Origin: Pseudophaeomoniella oleicola
Lineage: Eukaryota > Ascomycota > Eurotiomycetes > Phaeomoniellales > Phaeomoniellaceae
Assembly: GCA_003868215.1 (NCBI GenBank)
Contig: QWDQ01000080.1
Location: 1 to 64,000 of the forward strand
Reading direction: 5' to 3'
DNA: 64,000 nucleotides
The translations under genes and the position numbers were made by a program. Shown in pieces: positions 7,052 through 44,129 of this stretch (positions are counted from its first letter, which is position 1; each line of letters begins with the position of its first letter). Below the pieces are notes generated by a model. It was not told the origin of the DNA and made no database searches. It saw only the letters and a program-made list of their open reading frames with translations.

Positions 7052-7705
7052 TTACCAGCCATAAGAGCCACTGGCGGTGGTGCTAGTAGTGCCAGGAGTG
7101 GTGGTAGTACACTTTCCAGGGGTAGTCATGGTCGTTGTGATGGTTTTCTCTGGGGAGGTCTGCGTTGTGATGACTGTGGTTGTCTGGGTGATAGTATCGC
7201 CCGGCTGGGTGTAAGTGGTGGTCTCATAGGCGGTGGTGTAAACTTCTGCTGTGCTGTAGACGGTGGAGTAGTCTGTCACTGTTGTACCTGGTTGAGTTTC
7301 GGTAGAGGTCGAAGTCTCGGTGCAGGTCACGGTCGGGCCGGGGACGGTGACGTTGACAGTAGCGGTTTGAGTGATAGTGGCAGTCTGGCTTTCTGTCTGG
7401 GTTGCATATTCAGTGCTGGTAATGGTAGTGCTTTCGTATTCGGTGCTGGTCTCGGTCGCAGTCTGAACGTCGGTGACGGTGTTGGTCAAGTAAATGGTGG
7501 AGGTTTCCCAGCCACAGGTGCTCGTGCTTGTGCTTGTGCTATAGTATCCACCCTCAGGTGTTGTGGTGGTGGTTCCACCGTTTCCGGGAAGGGGGTTGGC
7601 TGTGGACAGAGCGCTGGTGACCTTGGTGAGTACAAATCAGAAGAACAAAGGGTAACCTGCACCTTACCTCAAGAGAAGGATCACTGAGGAGATTTGGAAC
7701 AACAT
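7052..7705 (-). CDS. Thr-rich secreted or cell-wall protein
   Basis: Two exons (7705-7668 and 7613-7052) with a 54-nt intron give 199 residues. The first exon encodes a signal peptide, MLFQISSVILLLSALSTA, continuing NPLPGNGG. The rest is almost wholly Thr/Ser/Val in short repeats of the type TVTxTxT and STEYESTTITSTEYATQT, with only three cysteines. Such sequence is expected to be heavily O-mannosylated, extended and wall-associated. There is no C-terminal hydrophobic stretch for a GPI anchor. Splicing at CACCAG, not the nearer CCAAG, is needed to stay in the Thr-rich frame. The opposite strand is open for 251 codons because Thr codons read as Gly/Ser/Cys in antisense; that frame is not a gene. 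Confidence 0.75.
7614..7667 (-). other. Intron of the Thr-rich protein gene
   Basis: 54 nt, GTAAGG...CACCAG. It joins AG to C, giving Ser directly after the hydrophobic core of the signal peptide. Confidence 0.7.
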
Positions 7706-16641: not shown

Positions 16642-17728
16642 AGTCGTCGCTGACTGTTCGTGGTGGCAGTCGTCAATCAGGGTCTGATCACACGTTTCAT
16701 TCCCTGGATCTTCTGTCGTCTTACTGAACAGTCTGCGTACAATCATATTAGTTCCAGGCTCTCAATCGACGGCCTACAGGCAGCAACAGCAACACCCTCA
16801 CTCTCGTGATGTGCAGCTCCTCTCTCCGCATCGCTCTTCTTGGTCATTGTTCCACGATGAAACCTCCACGAAGCTTTTCGCGCCGTTACAGACCTGCCAG
16901 TGGCCAAATCATCGTATCACGCATCAGTCAGAACCTGGAAATTTCTGCTCCTGTGGGACAACAGTGGACTGACAAGCCGGCGCACTGGAAATTGCTCGGT
17001 GTGTCCATGGAATACGAGACACGGAGAAAAAGGGTGCTGGAAATATAGTCTGGTGGAAGATAGCCGTCATCGTTGATGAGACCTAAAGAGAGGGGTAGTG
17101 TTGAATAGCAGAGGAAACGGTTCCCAAGGCTTTGGCTGGTTCTCTGCTGGCACGGCCACTTGTCTGTCGATAAGGTGTAAAACATCATGAGATTGGCATT
17201 GTCATCCAGAAGGGGGTCTACCGAAGGCTGGAATGAACGACGGGAATGTAAGGGATTAGAAAGGCGTAGAGAAGCAAAAACTCCCCTCTGCATTTAGAGA
17301 TAGTTGGTGTCGGATGACACGTTGTATTGAATCATGATGAAAGACATCATCATCTTCATCATCAGAATTTATGTCAGTCTACGAGCACATCCGTTGATGA
17401 TGCAGTCGCAAACACTTTGCATACCTAGTAGCTGTACATGTATGTACGTACTAATGAGATCCTTGAGACCTCGTTTCTTTGTGTATAGGAATGAAGTTCG
17501 AGGTTGAGGTTTTAAGAAGTATGCTGGAGTTGATGGTCTTTGACTTGTAATAAATTTAATACTCGGCGATCAATCGTTTCAGTAGTCTTAAATTTTCGGC
17601 ATTGGAGTTGATGCAGCAACCACCACATTGGATCGTCGTCACGTTTGATACTGCTTACTACCTATATGCTAGGTATGTAGTCTTGGTGGTGGAAATAACG
17701 CTTTCACATAGACCACCTATGTGGCTTC
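16642..17728. other. Intergenic, 1.1 kb
   Basis: 3' flank of the LaeA-like gene and promoter of the HemK-like gene. A minus-strand frame of 121 codons (16928-17293) has no recognisable domain and is probably chance. Confidence 0.5.
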
Positions 17729-19042
17729 ATGCCGCGTCTCTCACCCAGATTGCTGGCCCAGACTGCACGCCGCAATCCTCTGCTCGCAAAGCTCCTTCCA
17801 ACATGTCGAGATCTCGACTCCGCTCGCAATGAGTTGAGATGGCTGAGAGAACACGCCGAACATGTCAGCACCCACGAATTCTTTCGTCGTTCTCCCTTAC
17901 TACCTTCCATCGGTTGGCGTGCGTTGCTCGGGTACTACGTGGCTCGTCGGGCTCGCGGAGAACCGTTACAGTATATCTTGGGCACACAGCCTTTCGGGGA
18001 GCTGCAGATTCGGTGTAAACCTGGAGTTTTGATTCCAAGAACGGCAACGGAGATCTATGTCGAGAGCCTGTGCGAAGACGTCGTTAGGCTCAATTCGTAT
18101 ATTGCAGAGGCGTCCAAGAGCAACTCTACGGAACCAAAGTTGGAGAATTGGTATCACCGGCCCAACAGGATAAGGGTGCTGGATGTATGTACGGGGACTG
18201 GATGTATTGGTCTTGGGGTATATCAGAGGCTATTTCGGAATGCACAAGCTTCTTTGGATGCGGCAGTAGAAGTCCTTGGGATTGACAGATCTCCAGATGC
18301 TGTCCGGCTTGCCTTGGAGAACAAGGAGTCTAACGGGATACATCTCCTTCATGAGGACCAGACGCGGATGCAGTCACGCTATCAAGACAACATACATTTC
18401 CGAACCGCAGACCTCCTCGCTCATAGCGCTACTGGTGGTTCTCCGACGGCCATACCGTCCATCTACGACTACCTTGATAGCCAGGGTGAGGACTATCGGT
18501 ATTGGGACATCCTGATATCGAACCCTCCGTATGTCTCGAAACGGTCATACGATGATGGTACCACCACAAGGAGCGTGCGACGGTATGAACCAGTTTCGGC
18601 CCTCATCCCAAGCTCCGATAAATTCAAACAGTTACACCATCGTTTTAACCCACCTCCCGGCGATGAGTTCTACCCTCATCTCGTCGATCTCGCGGATTTC
18701 GTCAAGGCCCGTCTATCAGTCTTCGAAGTAAGTGACACCGATCAGGCACGCAACGTAGTCCAATACATCAGACAAAAATTCCAGGAAACATCAGATAGTA
18801 ACAACAACAACAACAATAACAACAACAACAACGAGAACAACGGTCGCCAAACAGACCCGTCTCTGATCGAGGCTTGGCAAGACCAGACGCTGGATCCAAC
18901 CCATGGCGAGGACCCTCTTGGGCCTATTCGAGCAGTTGCCTGGTGGCGAGGACCATGGGCGAAATGGAGGCAAGCGACGCTCGAACGCGACACACCTGAA
19001 TACTGCAAAGTGGTCTTTTCAACGACATCGGACGTCTCGTAG
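17729..19042 (+). CDS. HemK/PrmC-like N5-glutamine methyltransferase, probably mitochondrial
   Basis: A single exon of 437 residues. It should methylate the glutamine of the GGQ motif in a peptide-chain release factor. The Arg/Leu-rich start MPRLSPRLLAQTARRNPLL suggests mitochondrial import, as for yeast Mtq1. Family markers are EPLQYILGTQPF, the LIPRTATE substrate-binding block, SAM motif VLDVCTGTGCIGLGV, and catalytic NPPY within DILISNPPYVSK (about residue 268). An Asn-rich run at about residues 358-370 is encoded by an AAC/AAT microsatellite and lengthens the C-terminal part beyond the bacterial family (about 280 residues). The run may vary between isolates. Confidence 0.9.
   Translation: MPRLSPRLLAQTARRNPLLAKLLPTCRDLDSARNELRWLREHAEHVSTHEFFRRSPLLPSIGWRALLGYYVARRARGEPLQYILGTQPFGELQIRCKPGVLIPRTATEIYVESLCEDVVRLNSYIAEASKSNSTEPKLENWYHRPNRIRVLDVCTGTGCIGLGVYQRLFRNAQASLDAAVEVLGIDRSPDAVRLALENKESNGIHLLHEDQTRMQSRYQDNIHFRTADLLAHSATGGSPTAIPSIYDYLDSQGEDYRYWDILISNPPYVSKRSYDDGTTTRSVRRYEPVSALIPSSDKFKQLHHRFNPPPGDEFYPHLVDLADFVKARLSVFEVSDTDQARNVVQYIRQKFQETSDSNNNNNNNNNNNENNGRQTDPSLIEAWQDQTLDPTHGEDPLGPIRAVAWWRGPWAKWRQATLERDTPEYCKVVFSTTSDVS
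18799..18840 (+). repeat. AAC/AAT microsatellite in the HemK-like gene
   Basis: About fourteen consecutive Asn or Asn-like codons, mostly AAC, interrupted near the end by a GAG (Glu). Located in a loop after the catalytic domain core. Confidence 0.85.
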
Positions 19043-31451: not shown

Positions 31452-34400
31452 ATGGCCGAGATACCCCAGCATTGGCTAGGAAGTGGAAGCGTAGGCGAAG
31501 CGGGAATCTCATGTATGTCATCTACTCTTACGAGTGATGGAAGATTGACATAGATGAAGCACCTTCAAAAGGCTACTCGAGGCACTCAAGAGCTGCTAAG
31601 GTGGCTGCCAATGTGGCATTATCCGAAGACGCTCGTGGTACTGCTGCGTTCTATGCACAGCATGGCTTTCCACCTAACAAATGGTCTTTGCAACAAACCA
31701 ACGCAGATTTCAACTTTGCTGGGACAAAGCAACGAACTTCACCCTCAGCGCGCAATGGCACGGCTGGCCTACAAACAAAGAAGAGACCACGGGAGGACGC
31801 AAATATGGCATATCCAAGGATCGGAGCACCGACAGCTGTCGGCCAAGCCGCGCTGTCTATCAACCCGAACGCTGAATTGACAAAGCGAAGAAGAGTTAAT
31901 GAAATTCAATATCTCCCTTTACCAGGATATATTGGAAGTCCGTTCAATCTAGCGCCATCCCCAGCCCAAGACCCTTCTCGCTCAACCAGCAGAGAGAGCG
32001 AGTCTATTGGCTGTGGACGTGAGGCACCGAACATTGAACACAACGCACAGCATCCTCGACCAATTCAAGATGTAAGCCAGCAACGACGCATAATCACACT
32101 GAAAGTGAGCCGTGGAAAATACCTCCAACTTCTTCTTGCCCTGAATTCACAGGCAAACTCGGACAAGAGCAATGAGGCTGCTACCAATGCGCCATCTGCT
32201 CATTCGATTCAGATGCCGGAGACATCTCTGTACGGATCTAATGGTATTGCTCAGATGGGATATCACAATGTATGCAAGGGTAACGAGGCTGCTACCAATG
32301 CGCCATCTGTTCCTTCAATCCAGATCCCGGTCAAGCCTCTCTATGAATCTAATAGCATCGCTCAGACGGGGCATCACAATGTATGGATGGGTAACGAGGC
32401 TGCTAGTAATGCGCCATCTACTTTTCATGCAGGCTATGCTCCAACCGCCGTGAACGGAAACAACGCGGCCAGTCAGACCGAGAATCCATTTGTATGGAAG
32501 ACCATCGGGGCAGCTGTCAATGCGCCATGGCCTCCTCCGGACTACACCCCTATCACTCCTAGCGGTAACATGGTCATCCCTCAAGCAAAGAGTCAACATG
32601 GAAACATAATCTCTGGAAGAGTATCTGCCCAAGCATCACCGGCGCTCTCGGCATGTTTGTCTGGTCCAAGAACTCTGAACAACCCCGTGAACCAACACAC
32701 AGTAAGAAGCGAAAACTCGGTGGATGGCACGATTGTGGGAACACGATTCTTTGGCACTACGCCGAAGCAGGTGCTGAAAGTCAGCTCTCACCCTCCAGGA
32801 GCGAAACTCGCTCACAAGCCAGCACACGAATCAGCACCACCTGCCACTTTGAAGCAATCGAACATCAAAATTCCGCATCTATTACCCAAGTCCCTCGAGG
32901 ACGTGCCAAAGAGAAAAGGAAGGCCTCGCAAAGGCAAAGATGTCACAAATCTACAAGGTGCAGATAAGTTCATGTACGATGTAGACACTGTTCATCTGTG
33001 GGAGATGAGAACAAAGGAGCTCTTCATGAAAGAGACCGCCAAGGAGTGGAACTTCATCAACCATCATGATCCTTCACCATTACAGGTGGCAGCTGATGCA
33101 ATTCCAGTAATCTGGCAAGCACGATCTTATTTTGATGAACGCCAGAAAGAACTAATAGAGCTTGCCGTTGCCAATGAGAATGCCAAAGATCAATACGTTT
33201 GCCGACTCAAGGCATATTCTCCGCAGGAGCTCTACGAGCTGGTCAGTGCAAAGGCGATAGCATCTTCCCATGTTCCAGCCAGTAGCTACCAACCCCCAAA
33301 GCAGACGAGGCCGAAGAAGAGAAAGGCCCAAATTGAGAACCCTGTCGTCGACCCGGTATCCGCGCCCTTCAACTACCCGCATGTTAGTGACCAGACTCCA
33401 AAGCAGCCGTGTCCCAAGAAGAGAAAGACTGAGCATACAGTTCAGGCTCCTGCCTTTGGGCCCCGCATTCAATCCCAGCATTATCCTGGCAAATCAGTTG
33501 GCAGCTGGCAGACAGCTCAGCAGGCCATATTGGAGCAGAGAAAGCCTAGTAATATTGTCGACGTTCCTACCATTAACAAGCCCACTACCACTAATATTGG
33601 CGGCGCGCAACAGGTTTCGAACAACCAAGAGGCTGCTAAGCTACAGGGTGGAACACCTCAGAGTATCTTCCAACCAGCCGGACCTCTTCAAACTTCAGGC
33701 TCTGGAGTCCAGGGTTTACGATGTCGCAAGATACTGCAGACAGACCTGGGGAAGAAGAGAAAGTTTGAAGACCAAGAGATACAGATTGGGAGTAAAACTT
33801 CAAGACCTTCTGAAGACATAAATGGTTCGGCAGCCGACGAAAGTCTCCCCAAGCGGCAGAAGACTTCAGGCGCTGAGACCTGGCCACTGCGCTATTTTGT
33901 TCCACCGGAAGGTTGTGTGTTGGCTCCTTTCATAGACGCAGGCTGTATTAATTCCGACCTGGGTCTCCTTGACTACAGCGACTGCCGGTATCATTCACCA
34001 CGCAACGATACTGAGCTCGCATGGCTACAGGCTGCTATTAGACTAACAGTACGACATTATATAGCTCTTGCAGACGGCACCGATCCAGAGCTTGGCAGAG
34101 TAACACTCGACATGGGCTACATGGCTGTATACAACGATCTCCAGTTCCAATTGAAGATGTGGGCTCGCCGTAACCTTACTGCCCGACATTACTGGAACGT
34201 GGTGTGCATGCCAACGCTTTTCAAACTAGACAAATGGGAGGGTTCTTTTGATGGCTATCCGAACGCCGCGAATTATGGCAATGCTGAGAAAGCTATCATG
34301 GGAAGAATTGATAGACAGACGTACAGTGCGAAATGTGCAAGATGCGCACGAAGAGGAATATGGTGTGACAAAGAAATTCGAGGGAAGGGATCACCTTGTT

Positions 34401-34555
34401 CCGGCTGCAGCGGGTTAGGATTTGCTTGCATGCGCCATGATCGAGATCCCGAGACCAAACAGCAGAAGAAGCGAGAAACAGTAGAGGTTACAGCTGTTGA
34501 GGATGTCATCGAGAGGGAGACTGATGGAGGGTACTTCCGAGCTTGGGCGGAGTAA
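31452..34555 (+). CDS. Large nuclear protein with tandem repeats, AT-hook and C-terminal Zn2Cys6 cluster
   Basis: Exons 31452-31512 and 31554-34555, with a 41-nt intron, give 1020 residues beginning MAEIPQHWLGSGSVGEAGIS. Four 37-residue repeats with core NEAATNAPS start at residue 227. An AT-hook, KRKGRPRKGK, lies near 470-482. Two similar basic segments with PKKRK (nuclear-localisation type) lie near 605 and 640. A C-terminal cluster C948-x2-C-x6-C-x10-C-x2-C-x6-C979 has the spacing of fungal Zn2Cys6 DNA-binding domains, which are usually N-terminal. Between lies an acidic-aromatic domain of about 120 residues (GCINSDLGLLDYSDCRY to MPTLFKLDKWEG) that I do not recognise. A DNA-binding role is inferred; targets unknown. 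Confidence 0.75.
31513..31553 (+). other. Intron of the AT-hook/Zn2Cys6 gene
   Basis: 41 nt, GTATGT to CATAG, short for the window. It joins T to AT (Tyr) and links the only good upstream ATG to the long frame, whose first in-frame ATG is otherwise well inside. Confidence 0.7.
32171..32614 (+). repeat. Four-copy 111-bp coding tandem repeat
   Basis: The anchors AAT/AAC-GAG-GCT-GCT...AAT-GCG-CCA recur at exactly 111-bp spacing (32171, 32282, 32393, about 32504). Copies 1 and 2 are the most alike; copy 4 keeps little beyond AAVNAP. Decay towards the 3' side suggests older copies there. Confidence 0.85.
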
Positions 34556-36503: not shown

Positions 36504-37009
36504 AGCAGGAACGACATGTTCCCTATTGTGGATGCGAAATGCGGCGCGAGAGGGGTGTCTGGTGGAACAGCCCGGCCATGCAACGAAGGACTTGTGGGCA
36601 TTTACTAGGCGTTAGAACTTACGAGATATGCATCTTGGTGTAGGTAGGAACATGGAGAACAACTTAGCAGGAGCAGTCCTCTGTTACGGGTACTCATGGT
36701 GAATACTTTCCCTGATACATTTATCATATACAACCTCAAGTCCTTGACCGACGAAAATTTCCTCACTCGCTTATTAAGCCGGCGACAACCGATCAAGTTG
36801 ACTACATTCGCATACAGAACATACAGACGGCTCAACCCCTGCTGTTGTATTAGTTGGAGCAATTACGAGTGAAGATGGTCACACTCGCCACAGCTGCTGC
36901 CAATTATGAAGTCTCGAGGCATCCTGATGGTAGTGATGGTGTAACTCGACCAACGACATTCTGCCTTCATTTTCTCGAATATCCTGCTTCCAGATATATA
37001 ACTGGCCGA
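36504..37009. other. Intergenic after atg3
   Basis: 3' flank of atg3 and sequence before the exonuclease remnant. Short frames only. Confidence 0.5.
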
Positions 37010-37750
37010 ATTGTCCTACACAACAGTGGAATCTGAGGAGAAAGTAAGGAACGTGGGGAGTGAGATCCAACAACTTCCCTCCCAACCACCATCCCTATAC
37101 ATCCATGTTGAAGACGTCAGACTGTCGCACGAGGGAAGCATTCCGATGCTCCAGATATTCGGTGCATCCTTATGACATTCATATCTCATCGATCTCTATA
37201 CTCTTCAGAACCGGGCTTTCACTACCGCAGATTTTAGTGGGACGATGTTGGGAGGCCTTTTGAATGCGACCAGTATCCCAAAAGTGGCCTTCGCTGTTCG
37301 CGATGACTCAGATGCATTATACAGTCACTTTCGGATATGTGTAGATGGTGTACATGACCTTCAATCTATAGAATTTGCCCAGCCTGGTCCTCGAGACAAT
37401 TGCGCATCTGGCCTCGGCCAATGCATCGAGAGAGATGCTGCGATGACCTTCACTGAGCGAGAAGAATTCAGATCCACCAAGGACCGTGGCTTGAAGCTTT
37501 CTGCTCCAGAGCACGGTGGTAGGTATGGTGTCCTCCTGCATCGCCCGATCAGCGGTCCTATATTGAAATAAAGCGCCCAAGACGTCCAGTGTTTGCAAAG
37601 ATTGTGGAACCTCTATTCTACTTGTCTCACTGGAAGCTTGAAAGGTCAAAGTACACCTAGAGACCACCAAACGGGCTTGATGTCATAGTAGGAGGACTAG
37701 GTATGATGGGCATGGTCAACGTACGGGTATAGGGCCTTGGAGAAGCGACG
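37010..37750 (+). pseudogene. Decayed 3'-5' exonuclease (RNase D-like) domain gene
   Basis: One frame reads VGSEIQQLPSQPPSLYIHVE, LSHEGSIPMLQIF, then YLIDLYTLQNRAFTT, IPKVAFAVRDDSDALYSHF and AQDVQCLQRLWNLYS. These are the successive blocks of the DEDD-type exonuclease domain common in fungal genomes (family wording: PSLYIDLEGVxLSRHGxIxIxQI ... IPKVFFDVRNDSDALYxHF ... YCxQDVQxLPxLW). Two in-frame stops interrupt it (TGA at 37173-37175, TAA at 37569-37571). The first acidic pair is altered (HVED for DLEG) and the start is not clear. Remnants may run to about 37750. A 49-nt GT-AG stretch could splice out the first stop, but it would delete conserved residues. Confidence 0.7.
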
Positions 37751-40457
37751 AGTCATTCTGACTATTTCGCTGAGTTTCAGGTTGGCGGTGATAGCCCCAT
37801 GGGACATGATGACCATAGCAGTCACACGATGACATCCAGTAAAGCATCCAACTTCAAGCCCCTGGCTCCTCTTGCTCCAGCTACGGCATTTGAGCCTCCC
37901 ACAGCTGTGATCAAGGTCTTACTTGTTCAAGAGATGAAGAGCCAAGTGAAAGATCAGCCAGCATCTGTTGCGACTGACGCAGGAGGAGATGAGGCTAACG
38001 GACAACAAAAGGCCGGTTTAGCGATGGATCTTAGCAAGCTTCGCCTGACTATTGAGTGATCTTGGTGAGTTGGACAACGAGCCGGAAATCTTTCAGGACG
38101 AGTTGTGGGCCTACATAAGTTCATGACAGTGATTGGGTTGATGATGCCAAGGGGCTCACGGCATGTACTGTAGATGACTACGGCTACTTTGATCATTGAA
38201 ACATCGCAGGAATTTGAACATGGCCGCTGAAAGTAGGAATCGTGGATGTGCTCGACCGCGCAGGACAGACGTCGGCTTGGCAAAATAGCGAAAAATAGAT
38301 TCCGTAAAGACTGCAACTTATCCCTCCGTCTTGCGCTGTACCATCTTGAATCGTTGCTGCTGTACGCTACCGAGTATTTATGGTTAACGACAGGGGGACA
38401 TGAGGAAGCATATTTGAGCTGCTACTGAAAAACGCTAAATGTAGTCGCTCTGGCAAAGGTTTATGGTTTTGAATGATTGTATGAACAGCATTCACAATAC
38501 TGATCATTGGATGTGGGGTGTCATGGAGTGATGTTAAGACATGGTTACAGACCCCTGTAGTGTCTTTATTACCGGAAAGACAACTCGATTCTACTTTGGA
38601 TTCAGACGTGATTGAGGATATTTGCTTGCGTATTGAATTTCTCAATGGATCTTCTGCGCATCAATAAGATAAATACCCAAACTGTACGTCGTAACCTAAC
38701 ATCGTTGTGTATACCGTAGTCCTGTACATCATCATCTGATTCATTACAAAAGGACCTGAGAGATATAATGATATCATTACGGATATTATCAATTTTTCCA
38801 ACAAGCGACCCATTATCATCATATGATTTTTAATTATACATTCAGACATGCCCAGATTAAGCTCAATTGAAATAAAAAGTCACTACTCCAGTACTCACAA
38901 AAGGTGATACCAGCAAGACCAAACCGTGAGGTTGCTATTTGATATCTCACCAAATGGACAATTTGGACGATATCCAAAGAACCGAACCAATGACATAATC
39001 TTTGAACGACCATGCGATAGAACAGGAAGATACCCGTTCCGAGATCTTACCCGTAATACACATATTCCCACAAGCGGAGACACCCACGGGATCTGCATCA
39101 AGAGAAGCACCAGTCCACGTTGGGAGAGCTACTGAATCTACAAGATGATATCCTGGCCCTACGGTTAATGTCTCCTCTCGGGAATTGCTTCTGGTAAAAT
39201 CATCGTGAATGAGAAAAGCCCTGGAAGCCGTCACCTCTGGGCTCTAATCCGACAGATTGAAGATGAGATCACAGGTCTGCAAAAGAAATGGCGTAATCTA
39301 GCGAAAAAAGATACTTGCTCCATCTATATAACATGTGATCCGTGGATTTGGAAACGTCTTGACTATGGGCACATGTTCTGTCAATATTACAGGTTTGAGA
39401 CTGAGAGGATAACGAAGCGATGTTGTGTTTGTAAGTCTATGATTGTTAGGCATGGGCGGTCGTACTTTGCGGGAATAGTCTAGGCCGCCTACTCTGTATC
39501 GTGACCAATTTTGAGAGCTCATTTAGTAGAAAATACAAATATCTCCAATAGCTGACATGTTGAAGAACACAAACCACTGCACAGTCTGTAGCATGCCAAG
39601 TCCATTGCGTAAGTATGACCTGACTGACCGGGACGGACCCTCAAGGTGCATCTTGTTCGCTGAAGTGCATACGGTAAATATCGAATCACTTCTTCACAAT
39701 GCTTACTAATTTGCATTAGTACCCAAGTTGTAATTGTGCTGATCGCCAAATGAACTCGTGTATCTGCAATGAGAATGACACAATTTCCTGCTGTTGCGTC
39801 GCCCGCTCCAACAAATCTTGCTTTCTGATACTGCTAACTCCCTAATTTACGACTGAACCACATGAGATTTCTTCGATCACACCTTCGTCCGCATGACGGG
39901 AGGCACTTCAATGCTGGGATCAGCAGGACTACTGTCGTTGATGCCTACTGGTCGAGCTCGGTGATCTCTTCAAGGGTGTGACCACCCCACTGCTTTTGTA
40001 AGACGGGCCGACACTCCCGAGGAATGGTACCGGGAATGGTACCGGGAATGGATCGCCTAGTGTAATGATACTGTGACAAGAAAGATACGATTAGCCCACG
40101 ATACCGGTGATTCAGAGATGGCCCCGCAACGGGTAATAAATTCGTTAGAGGTGATCTTTCCAAAAACAGCTAGTGTCAGGGGAATGTTACTTCCTCAGGC
40201 ATATATTGAAGTAACAATACAGTATGGTAATATTGTAACATACCTTACCTATCTTACTGTACTAATAATACCACCGGTCAATTGGTCGAAGGCCAGACCA
40301 GGGAACACACGGTAACCTATCTACTTAGGTGATTTGAGGAGATTTGAAAGTCGAGGAAGTGGAAATAGCAGAAAATTGGGAAGGTAAATCAGCAGACTGA
40401 TCTCCCTTTGGTAAAATGTGATCGTTGATGCTCTGCAGCTGCCATTCTCTTTACTAC
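37751..40457. other. Gene-free region, 2.7 kb
   Basis: Frames here are short (under about 95 codons) with no domain I recognise. A 13-bp tandem repeat (GGAATGGTACCG units) lies at about 40020-40050. The last few hundred bases should be the promoter of the LysM-CBM20 gene. Confidence 0.5.
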
Positions 40458-42789
40458 ATGCTCACGATGGCTTCTCTTCCTGCTGTCATCTTACTATGGT
40501 GCGTCGCATCTCTCGAGTTTGTGCAGGGGCAGATATTCACCCAATATGTCATACCTCACAACTGGCCCGGCATCAGCCAGAGCTGCGGGCAAGCTTTGAA
40601 TACGACTGTTGCATGCCCTAGACTTCTAGCATTCATGATTCCTGAGTAAGCAGAAGCATTTCATCATCTGACCGCTCATTGTGCTCCTACAGAGAAGGCA
40701 TGAAGCTAATCAGAAGTAGCCTTCCACGTCTGAACCCCGAAAACTTGACCTCATTATGCACAACGTCTTGCCAGAGTTCATTGAACAGCGTGAGGCAAAC
40801 GATTCAACAAGGCTGTACTGCTAGTAATGATAAGATCACTTATGATGGCATGGTCTATCCAGGTAAATGACCCTTGCTTTCGATTTCATTGCGGTCCAAA
40901 GCTGACATGTAACGCCATTAATAGCTACGTATCTTGTTGATCAATTTCTTTTCGCCTACAGCGTTTCCTGCCGCAAAGATTCGTATGTTTTATATCCTGA
41001 AGACTAAATAAACTCGCGTTAATTACAAGCACAGGAATACTGGCGTATATTGTGACACATTGTCCACCCAATGGCTCCAGCTCGATACCGTGACTTCTGC
41101 AGAGGAGTGCTCCGACTGCCAATTGGGAACTACTCAGCTTCAATTAAACTCGCCATTTGGATACGACGACGACCTCGCATCTGATTATGTATCTACTACT
41201 TCTTCTTGTGGTATTGCCAACTATCCATTCACCAAACCAGGGACATATGCACTAGGGACTGCCACCCCAACGACAACTACCGCTTCTGTCTCCGGTTCCA
41301 CTGCCACAGACTCAACACCGACGGCAACATGCTACAGCTCTTACCAAGTGCAAACAGGCGATACGTGCGACAGCATAACTGAGGCTAAAAATGTGAGCAC
41401 GTACTCTATCTGGTCACAGAATGATATAGGATCAGATTGCTCCAATCTCACAGTTGGTTCGACCTTATGCCTACAGGGTGGATGTCAGACATATCTCGTG
41501 CAGCCGACAGACACATGCGAGTCAATTATAGCAGCAAGCAACAACAATGGAACCCTTTTGACCGATGGGCAATTTGTCATTTGGAATCCAAATATTGACG
41601 TACTATGCAGAAATCTGCATCTTTGGGATAACACGTATTTTTGCCTGAGGTTGGTTCAAAATCCCTTTGCCTGTGGTAGTACGTACAGATACTCAACGAT
41701 TATCTAGCCGCCCTCTGGGATTTATTGATGGACCAGATCCTTTCGATACCTCAGACTCTAATGATACAGCCACAACCAGCGCTACCTGGTCGCCAGCCAC
41801 AGTCACAAGTGAGCCACAGCTGCCTACCGCTCCCGGTACGGTTCAAGATTGTTCAAATTATCAGAATTATCGGGCCATTGTTGCCTATCAAGACGCCTTT
41901 TATCAGCCCACTGATCCGACACCCGGTTATATCGTCAATGATTGTGATTACGTAGCCTCGGACTATGGAGTCGCCTTGGACGATTTTCTAACATGGAATC
42001 CTAGTCTGAATGCAACCAATTGCAGGCTGGCTCCAGGTTACAGCTATTGTGCTTTTCAGTCAGGTTATGGTAAGACTTCGAGAACGATGATCGAATTGAG
42101 AAGATATTAACTTGACAACAGCTGAGCCATCGCGGGTCTCGACCGATGGCTGTGTAGACATTGACCCGTCCACAGTGCCGTCAGGAACAAGCAGCGGCTG
42201 CACCTGCTATGCACGAGTATTTGGATGGGGTTTCAACGGCTCGTATACTTGTGACGACATCGTTGCAGACTACGACATCACTACTTCTCAGCTACAAAGC
42301 TGGAATCCCTGGCTTGGTTCCGATTGTGACACTGGACTTTATAGCGATCTAGAGGAGGACGACAGCAGTCGAGCCGTCTGCGTGGGTCTTGGCAGTGGCA
42401 GTGGCAGTGGCGGCGACGGCGGCGGCAGCGGTGGTGGTACAAACATCGCTTGCTCAACGAATGTTGAGGTTGCCGTCAATTTCAAACTTCTCCATACTAC
42501 CCTCTGGGGTCAGAATGACTTCGTGACCGGAAATATCACAGAGCTGACCTTCTGGTCGACATCGGCAGTTCCCCTCTCAGCAGACGGTTATACCTCCACA
42601 AGCCCGCTCTGGGCTACCACGGTGAACATATTGCCTGGAGTGTCGTTCGAGTACAAGTATTACCAGACGGAGGGCGTCGCTACAAATGTTACTTGGGAGG
42701 GAAACCAGAATACCCCTTCAGGAAATCGGATGTTCACTGTGCCATGTGATGTCACAGATGTCACAGTCAATGACCGTTGGCAAGAATAG
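40458..42789 (+). CDS. Secreted multi-LysM protein with C-terminal CBM20
   Basis: Six exons (40458-40645, 40693-40862, 40925-40982, 41035-41649, 41708-42069, 42122-42789) keep one frame and give 686 residues. A signal peptide (MLTMASLPAVILLWCVASLEFVQG) is followed by the Cys-containing N-terminal region usual in fungal multi-LysM proteins (FAYSVSCRKDSNTGVYCDTL). LysM-type modules lie at about 242-284 (YQVQTGDTCDSI), 291-342 (YLVQPTDTCESI), a degenerate one at 395-458 and another at 493-553. A Gly/Ser linker (554-571) leads to a CBM20 at about 575-684, with LLHTTLWGQNDFVTGNI, PGVSFEYKYYQTEG, VTWEGNQN and TVNDRW. LysM binds chitin or peptidoglycan, CBM20 starch. No catalytic domain, so it is a binding protein, perhaps an effector or wall component. 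Confidence 0.85.
40646..40692 (+). other. Intron 1 of the LysM-CBM20 gene
   Basis: 47 nt, GTAAGC to CTACAG, phase 2. Confidence 0.85.
40863..40924 (+). other. Intron 2 of the LysM-CBM20 gene
   Basis: 62 nt, GTAAAT to AATAG, phase 1, joining VYP to ATYLVDQ. Confidence 0.85.
40983..41034 (+). other. Intron 3 of the LysM-CBM20 gene
   Basis: 52 nt, GTATGT to CACAG, phase 2, leaving a 58-nt exon between introns 2 and 3. Confidence 0.85.
41650..41707 (+). other. Intron 4 of the LysM-CBM20 gene
   Basis: 58 nt with the weak donor GTTGGT and acceptor ATCTAG. This is the only pairing of plausible size that keeps both flanking frames (CLS to RPLGF). Confidence 0.7.
42070..42121 (+). other. Intron 5 of the LysM-CBM20 gene
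   Basis: 52 nt, GTAAGA to CAACAG, phase 1, joining SGY to AEPSRV. Confidence 0.88.
42396..42442 (+). repeat. Gly/Ser codon repeat between LysM and CBM20
   Basis: GGC/AGT/GGT-rich repeats encode GSGSGSGGDGGGSGGG, a flexible linker at the module border. Confidence 0.85.
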
Positions 42790-43534: not shown

Positions 43535-44129
43535 ATGCGAAATCTTTTGACGATTATCGCCAGCATTGGCCTCCTAGGAGCATGCAGTGCGGATCAGGGT
43601 CCGAACCCAAGCCTCAGCGCTCTGCGTCTCTCTCCCGATCAGTTTGGCAGCAACTCCTCCGTCACGACGGTGCCTAATTGCCAAGGGGTCCCAAACGGCT
43701 TGTCGACAAATGGAACCTGTGCAGTGACAGGGACTATCACGAAGACCGGTGTCTATCCTATCAACATGTGGTAAGTTTTTAAACCATCTCAGAGAGAATG
43801 ACAGAGTCAATCAATGTTTATACTGACTTCTCCTTTTTTTTTTCTCCCTCTCAAGGCCGAATCAACCCCTTGTAAAGCGACCAGAGCATTGTGCAGGATA
43901 TTGCCATCGCAGAGTTGGAAATTATAGTACATCTTTTGGAGCACAGCTTATGACCGCGAACTTAACGATGGGAGCGAATTCAACGATGGGAGTCAATGGC
44001 TTGAGGAGCAACGGGACCTATGCGTGCGCGTGCTTCGACAGCAGCATCGCGACGTTGAAGGTGACCGCATCGGCGAATTCTTCAACCGTGTTTTATGATG
44101 CCAGCTGTTTTGTATGCCGGGGAAATTGA
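43535..44129 (+). CDS. Small secreted cysteine-rich protein
   Basis: Exons 43535-43770 and 43856-44129, with an 85-nt intron, give 169 residues. The signal peptide MRNLLTIIASIGLLGACSA is followed by a mature part with eight Cys: one pair in NCQGVPNGLSTNGTC, then HCAGYC, CAC and CFVC. The even count, and the clustering in CxxxC, CxC and CxxC spacings, suggest four disulfides. Several NxS/T sites are present. I do not recognise a family. Size, secretion and cysteine content fit an apoplastic effector or antimicrobial-type peptide, an inference only. The intron has a long T/C tract before TCAAG. It lies 0.7 kb downstream of, and in the same direction as, the LysM-CBM20 gene. Confidence 0.72.
43771..43855 (+). 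other. Intron of the small secreted cysteine-rich gene
   Basis: 85 nt, GTAAGT to CTCAAG, with a polypyrimidine tract. It joins TG to G (Trp) so that INMW continues PNQPLVKRPEHC. Confidence 0.8.

What the first reader, a model, noticed from the sequence alone, without database searches (positions are those of the whole stretch)
40458..42789. LysM modules fused to a starch-binding CBM20 with no enzyme
Six exons hold one frame from signal peptide through four LysM-type regions and a Gly/Ser linker to a CBM20. Chitin/peptidoglycan-type and starch-type binding modules in one secreted, non-catalytic protein is an unusual pairing that I cannot recall as characterised. It could tether the hyphal wall to plant starch or to alpha-glucan, or mask both chitin and alpha-glucan of the fungus's own wall from recognition. 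This is the best candidate here for an undescribed function.
Basis: partly seen in the sequence, partly recalled or inferred. Interest (0 to 1): 0.8.

Follow-up and report, generated by a model that had tools for sequence, protein, structure and literature searches.

The report
LysM protein ending in starch-binding module
A fungal gene encodes a secreted-looking, enzyme-free protein that joins four chitin-binding-type modules to an intact-looking starch-type binding module, which suggests a protein that ties chitin to alpha-glucan, although binding has not been tested.

Summary
A six-exon gene at 40458-42789 (+) encodes 686 aa: signal-like start, Cys-rich N-terminal domain, four LysM-type modules, Gly/Ser linker, C-terminal CBM20 (66 bits, cut-off 23). 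LysM4, linker and CBM20 share one uninterrupted exon, so the fusion does not depend on intron calls. Pfam passes only LysM1; LysM2-4 rest on profile comparison and predicted folds. The CBM20 keeps the site residues recalled for A. niger glucoamylase (Tyr527 replaced by Trp) and its Cys pair.

The body is an ordinary ascomycete multi-LysM protein: 78 relatives found, none listed with CBM20. Where it has CBM20, 31 of 51 aligned relatives have more LysM. Its best-supported group (97/99) holds a Cercophora protein whose C-terminus is another module, one that in this genome was found only behind GH71 alpha-1,3-glucanase domains. So in one small clade the same C-terminal position holds two modules borrowed from alpha-glucan-active enzymes.

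I read it as a wall lectin bridging chitin and alpha-glucan, the fungus's own more likely than plant starch. Binding, expression, secretion and species are untested. It is a new variant of a known kind. The paper searches listed no such fusion, but they are limited.

The parts
40458..40645 (+). exon 1, with start codon (40458; a second in-frame ATG at 40467) and signal-peptide-like stretch 40458-40529 (aa 1-24)
   Evidence: signal peptide by eye, no predictor run
40693..40862 (+). exon 2, Cys-rich N-terminal domain
   Evidence: aligned with relatives
40925..40982 (+). exon 3, N-terminal domain
41035..41649 (+). exon 4: end of N-terminal domain, LysM1, most of LysM2
41342..41473 (+). LysM1 (aa 242-285)
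   Evidence: Pfam PF01476 47.6 bits; genome search 30.5 bits
41483..41711 (+). LysM2 (aa 289-345), spans intron 4 (41650-41707)
   Evidence: hhalign to LysM1 97.9%
41708..42069 (+). exon 5: end of LysM2, Ser/Thr-rich spacer, LysM3
41850..42056 (+). LysM3 (aa 392-460)
   Evidence: hhalign to LysM2 97.4%; helix-helix unit in the model of P0004 at low to middling confidence
42122..42789 (+). exon 6: LysM4, linker and CBM20 in one uninterrupted frame, stop at 42787-42789
42151..42387 (+). LysM4 region (aa 475-553)
42385..42447 (+). Gly/Ser linker (aa 553-573)
   Evidence: a 35-base piece of it (42391-42425) occurs once in the genome assembly
42448..42786 (+). CBM20 (aa 574-686)
   Evidence: Pfam 66.4 bits; A. 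niger glucoamylase starch-binding domain E 5.3e-18; site residues

Best explanation
The gene encodes a secreted, non-catalytic, two-specificity lectin. The LysM modules bind chitin in the fungal wall (inferred from the family). The CBM20, on a flexible Gly/Ser linker, binds alpha-1,4-linked glucan (inferred from conserved site residues). Held on chitin at one end, it ties or covers alpha-glucan on the hyphal surface, so that it strengthens or shields the wall. It arose within an ordinary ascomycete multi-LysM family when the C-terminal LysM position was taken over by a CBM20. Shown here by computation: gene model, modules, site residues, a different C-terminal module in a clade mate. Inferred: secretion, ligands, the direction of the exchange, and the role in the fungus's own wall rather than on plant starch.
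For: Modules in one protein. CBM20 keeps the equivalents of Trp543, Asp554, Tyr556, Trp563, Lys578, Trp590, Glu591, Asn595 and both Cys, with Tyr527 replaced by Trp (residue roles recalled). Relatives: 78 LysM proteins, none listed with PF00686. Of the 51 aligned, after LysM4: 31 have a further LysM-type stretch (WNP), 6 end within 50 aa, 4 have another tail, 10 lack an aligned LysM4. The window groups with P0004, P0009 and P0023 at 97/99, and these three share its short LysM2-LysM3 spacer (43 aa against 46; only one other of 51 is as short). P0023 ends in a module that in this genome was found at 6 places (five at E below 1e-5, one at 0.05), all behind GH71 domains in two loci; a profile from five GH71-side copies finds P0023 at E 1.5e-18 and none of the other 82 proteins held above its threshold. 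GH71 enzymes commonly carry CBM24, which binds alpha-1,3-glucan (PMC12394665, PMC11837517, passages). The genome has five GT5 places, two in open frames over 2200 aa (one scanned). LysM proteins shield hyphae from chitinases (PMC7176902, PMC6773873, PMC7337405, passages); C. rosea LYSM2, with LysMs at 235-280 and 289-339, has a similar layout.
Against: CBM20 modules are known from starch-degrading enzymes; the other three CBM20 places in this genome sit with GH15 (two) or alpha-amylase domains, so starch is the default ligand, and binding to wall alpha-1,3-glucan is not shown. The P0023 module is called CBM24-like from its position, not from a CBM24 profile; a module attached to GH71 need not bind: the C-terminal beta-sandwich of A. 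nidulans GH71C showed no significant binding to the insoluble polysaccharides tried, alpha-1,3-glucan and starch included (PMC12394665, passage). P0004 and P0009 show no such module (P0004's only match is a weak one inside its LysM3; P0009 ends before LysM4; their models may be incomplete). The tree is midpoint-rooted with eight open forks and two long rows. No expression, localisation or binding data; the fungus is unnamed.
Confidence: 0.45

Rival explanations
1. Starch tether: the LysMs anchor the protein in the hyphal wall and the CBM20 holds hyphae or the local enzymes on starch granules of plant tissue or grain.
For: The CBM20 is closest in the PDB, by sequence, to glucoamylase starch-binding domains; site residues kept; the genome encodes two GH15-CBM20 genes and one alpha-amylase place with CBM20; a laccase of Zymoseptoria tritici carries a functional CBM20 with Kd about 33 uM for beta-cyclodextrin (PMC6700816, passages).
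Against: No amylolytic family among the 18 ORFs of the window scanned, of 46 listed; the clade mate's module is GH71-type, not starch-type.
Confidence: 0.25
2. LysM effector with an extra module: the protein mainly scavenges chitin fragments or shields chitin; the CBM20 only adds weak avidity or keeps it at the surface and has no role of its own.
For: The window keeps 35 of the 37 columns that are at least 90% conserved in the family, the other two lying in the stretch it lacks; none of the relatives examined has a CBM20; chitin shielding is reported for LysM proteins (PMC7176902, PMC6773873).
Against: The recalled ligand residues of the CBM20 are kept although it shares only 36-47% identity with the four other CBM20s compared, which suggests selection for binding.
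Confidence: 0.2
3. Artefact: an assembly or annotation join of a LysM gene and a CBM20 gene.
Against: LysM4 and CBM20 share one open frame; a 35-base piece of the linker occurs once in the assembly; the linker starts just after the family's conserved end of LysM4; the contig runs on for 48 kb downstream.
Confidence: 0.05

Closest known systems
Ascomycete multi-LysM secreted proteins (the relatives; by layout only also Clonostachys rosea LYSM2, PMC7176902)
   Same: Same N-terminal Cys-rich domain and LysM series, 22-46% identity; the body of the window protein belongs to this family
   Different: After LysM4 these have further LysM modules, nothing or other tails, no CBM20 in the set examined; 47 of 51 also have a longer stretch (83-158 aa, holding one more LysM in the consensus) where the window has 46 aa
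MoCVNH-LysM lectin of Magnaporthe oryzae (PMC4392113, passages)
   Same: Non-catalytic fungal protein that combines LysM with a second lectin type of different sugar specificity
   Different: LysM is inserted in a CVNH domain there; no CVNH was found here
CBM20 of glucoamylase and alpha-amylase; CBM20-laccase ZtrLac1A (PMC6700816, passages)
   Same: CBM20 appended to another module; in the genome's own GH15 genes also C-terminal
   Different: Those carry an enzyme; here the partner is a chitin-type binding protein
Cercophora scortea P0023, LysM protein with a GH71-type C-terminal module
   Same: Same LysM family, same clade (97/99), short spacer, C-terminal module of a presumed alpha-glucan binder
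   Different: Module is CBM24-like (alpha-1,3-glucan) by inference, not CBM20
Subgroup C killer-toxin-like chitinases (LysM-CBM18-GH18)
   Same: Secreted fungal proteins with LysMs
   Different: No GH18 and no CBM18 found here

Membership tests
CBM20 (PF00686) | profile score above the curated cut-off | tested here: met
   66.4 bits against 23.3
CBM20 (PF00686) | two starch-binding sites (A. niger residues 527, 554, 556, 563 and 543, 578, 590, 591, 595; roles recalled) | tested here: met
   8 of 9 identical, Tyr527 replaced by Trp
CBM20 (PF00686) | binds starch or cyclodextrin | not testable with these tools
   needs protein
Ascomycete multi-LysM secreted protein family | sequence kinship over the N-terminal domain and LysM series | tested here: met
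   78 relatives, best E 2.9e-141; grouped at 97/99 with P0004, P0009, P0023; 35 of 37 near-invariant columns kept
Ascomycete multi-LysM secreted protein family | secretion signal | tested here: inconclusive
   hydrophobic first 24 aa seen directly; no predictor run
LysM effector (loose sense: secreted LysM protein without catalytic domain) | LysM present, no catalytic domain | tested here: met
   only LysM-type and CBM_20 families at E <= 1
LysM effector (strict sense: LysMs and no other annotated domain) | no other domain | tested here: not met
   CBM20 present
LysM effector (loose sense: secreted LysM protein without catalytic domain) | binds chitin and perturbs host immunity or shields hyphae | not testable with these tools
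   needs experiment
CVNH-LysM lectin | CVNH domain | tested here: not met
   no CVNH family in the Pfam scan
Subgroup C chitinase | GH18 domain | tested here: not met
   no GH18 in the protein; GH18 matches lie on other contigs
Starch-degrading CBM20 enzyme | catalytic domain such as GH13 or GH15 | tested here: not met
   none in the Pfam scan; found beside the genome's three other CBM20s

The most novel reading that the evidence does not exclude
A small clade of fungal LysM proteins has repeatedly exchanged its last LysM for alpha-glucan-binding modules (CBM20 here, a GH71-type module in Cercophora), making dedicated non-enzymatic proteins that cross-link or jointly mask chitin and alpha-glucan in the fungal wall.
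Probability: 0.3. Interest if true: 0.7.

Novelty: new variant of a known kind. Interest (0 to 1): 0.5.

Why it matters
How chitin and alpha-glucan are held together in fungal walls, and how both are kept from recognition or digestion, is to my knowledge mostly discussed in terms of enzymes and of chitin-binding effectors alone. A natural protein with a chitin-type end and an alpha-glucan-type end, with a clade mate bearing another module of that sort, would make non-enzymatic bridging directly testable: two recombinant proteins, a few polysaccharides and one deletion would decide it.

Tried and rejected
Two separate genes: rejected, because LysM4 and CBM20 share one exon and frame.

CBM20 copied recently from the fungus's own glucoamylase or amylase: rejected, identities 42.9, 39.6 and 36.4%.

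Search for other LysM-CBM20 fusions: residues 460-686 gave 4 hits (three LysM proteins, one amylase), probably swamped by the Gly-rich linker; residues 574-686 gave no hit among 189 candidates, although by its PDB score glucoamylase CBM20s should pass, so the word filter was too strict. These two calls do not show absence elsewhere. All three protein searches are used.

N-terminal domain: hhalign shows no likeness to LysM; no fold assigned, and the fold lists barely test that part.

P0023 tail against solved structures: best E 0.19, not meaningful. Two hundred shuffles of this tail reached at most 1.9 bits against the two GH71-locus proteins, the real tail 72.5 and 64.0.

Neighbours: no chitinase, amylase or alpha-glucan family among 18 of the 46 listed ORFs; small or intron-rich genes may be missed. 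The stretch 36700-40400 upstream has no other match in the assembly.

Bacterial promoter and terminator scan gave nothing above shuffles and does not apply to a fungus.

Full report
What is there. On the + strand at 40458-42789 six exons joined by five GT-AG introns (47-62 nt) give one frame of 686 aa. Pfam finds LysM at aa 242-285 (47.6 bits) and CBM_20 at aa 581-662 (66.4 bits), two further LysM-type families weakly, and no catalytic family. The six-frame genome search finds the CBM20 without splicing (70.4 bits). LysM4, linker and CBM20 lie in one open frame from 42100 to 42789, so the fusion does not hang on any intron.

The CBM20. It aligns to the A. niger glucoamylase starch-binding domain at E 5.3e-18. 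Of nine residues that I recall as its two binding sites, eight are identical and Tyr527 is Trp; the first Cys and the Cys before the end of the A. niger domain are kept. Identity to the other three CBM20s of the genome is 36-43%, to A. niger 47%, so it is not a recent copy of them. Those three sit in two GH15 frames and directly behind an alpha-amylase frame.

The family. The protein search gave 78 relatives, best E 2.9e-141; 76 list PF01476, two list no domain, none lists PF00686. That search scored only the 7996 candidates sharing most words. Scanning 51 of the 78 again gave CBM_20 only in the window protein, and the window CBM20 found none of P0001-P0079, only the amylase P0080 and the window's own exon. 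In the 51, the stretch between LysM2 and LysM3 is 83-158 aa in 47 and 20-43 aa in 4, against 46 in the window; the consensus holds one more LysM there. After LysM4: 31 have a further WNP, the LysM hallmark used as the test, 6 end within 50 aa, 4 have another tail, and 10 rows have no aligned LysM4. The window keeps 35 of 37 columns conserved in at least 90% of rows; the other two lie in the stretch it lacks. This genome shows no second LysM gene (one further match at E 0.65 is chance level; a loose first look, so a lower bound).

The sister group. A tree of 50 rows (2 of 52 dropped as shorter than 300 aa) puts the window protein with P0009 (Parachaetomium), P0004 (Podospora appendiculata) and P0023 (Cercophora scortea) at 97/99; it is midpoint-rooted, has eight open forks and warns of two long rows elsewhere. 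The same three have the short spacer of 43 aa. P0023 ends in a Cys-rich module without a Pfam name. In the window's own genome this module was found at 6 places in two loci, five at E below 1e-5 and one at 0.05, each behind a GH71 domain. At C2 it is in the same open frame as the end of the GH71 domain; at C63 the module frame follows the GH71 frame, and part of that GH71 match holds four in-frame stops that may be introns. A profile of five GH71-side copies finds P0023 at E 1.5e-18 and no other of the 83 proteins held above its threshold; next is P0004 at 0.03, inside its LysM3. Two hundred shuffles of the P0023 tail stay at or below 1.9 bits against 72.5 and 64.0. Published passages say that CBM24 is among the commonest partners of GH71 and binds insoluble alpha-1,3-glucan (PMC12394665, PMC11837517). 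That the P0023 module is a CBM24 is my inference from this position; no CBM24 profile was run. Against it: in PMC12394665 the C-terminal beta-sandwich of A. nidulans GH71C showed no significant binding to the polysaccharides tried, so attachment to GH71 does not prove binding.

Reading. Two related LysM proteins thus carry, at the same C-terminal place, modules that elsewhere serve alpha-glucan-active enzymes. The genome has five GT5 places, two in open frames of 2227 and 2276 aa; the one scanned has GT5 and GT1 families, as alpha-1,3-glucan synthases do (recalled; no GH13 part was seen in that frame). It has GH71 at six loci (seven matches). LysM proteins protect hyphae from chitinases in Clonostachys, Trichoderma and Zymoseptoria (passages). 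I therefore favour a wall lectin that holds chitin and alpha-glucan together or covers both (0.45), before a starch tether (0.25) and a LysM effector with an incidental module (0.2). CBM20 is known to bind alpha-1,4-glucan, and binding to the mostly alpha-1,3-linked wall glucan is not shown; this is the weakest step.

What is known. A review lists for fungal LysM proteins chitinases, pure LysM effectors, and fusions with CVNH, amidase and polysaccharide deacetylase, and expects the list to grow; the word starch does not occur there, and the CBM families named in the passages shown are 50 and 18 (PMC4392113, passages). The closest precedents are the CVNH-LysM lectin (same paper) and a laccase with a working CBM20 (PMC6700816, passages). 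Paper searches for LysM or CBM50 with CBM20, starch-binding or the Pfam numbers listed no title or abstract opening on such a fusion; two searches showed 15 of 499 and 25 of 114 papers. Of the 13 papers I opened three by passage, and of this and later questions ten more by passage; none was read whole. PMC4039746, the one paper found with both Pfam numbers, has them in different proteins; it also lists a 'starch binding domain' protein with a chitin-binding (PF03067) domain, which is probably a starch-active oxygenase (recalled) and not a LysM protein. Subscription papers, dbCAN and InterPro were not searched, so 'undescribed' is provisional.

Limits. Two of the three protein searches were poorly suited to find other fusions. 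No expression evidence exists here. Signal peptide by eye. The second in-frame ATG at 40467 is also possible as start.

Noticed in passing
window 43537-44129 (+): Small two-exon-like frame just downstream, with a signal-peptide-like start and several Cys; a small secreted protein by eye, not scanned.
   Followed up: no
G000 C63:2098-3990 (-), loci L018, L020, L029, L030, L032: GH71-type locus with Cys-rich modules behind it; part of the GH71 match shows four in-frame stops, which may be introns or decay.
   Followed up: partly
P0023 (Cercophora scortea), residues 541-623: LysM protein ending in a GH71-associated module; a LysM plus CBM24-like fusion if the module is CBM24.
   Followed up: partly
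window 31538-34555 (+): Open frame of 1005 aa without any Pfam family, with a Cys cluster near its C-terminus that looks Zn-binding by eye.
   Followed up: no
window 7052-7636 (-): Ser/Thr-rich repetitive frame without a Pfam family, possibly a wall or surface protein.
   Followed up: no
window 17699-19042 (+): PrmC/HemK-type methyltransferase frame with a run of Asn codons inside.
   Followed up: no
G000, PF00704 search: Only three contigs hold GH18 matches (C23, C83, C40; the last below the cut-off), and no LysM match lies there: few chitinases for a filamentous fungus, though counts are lower bounds.
   Followed up: no
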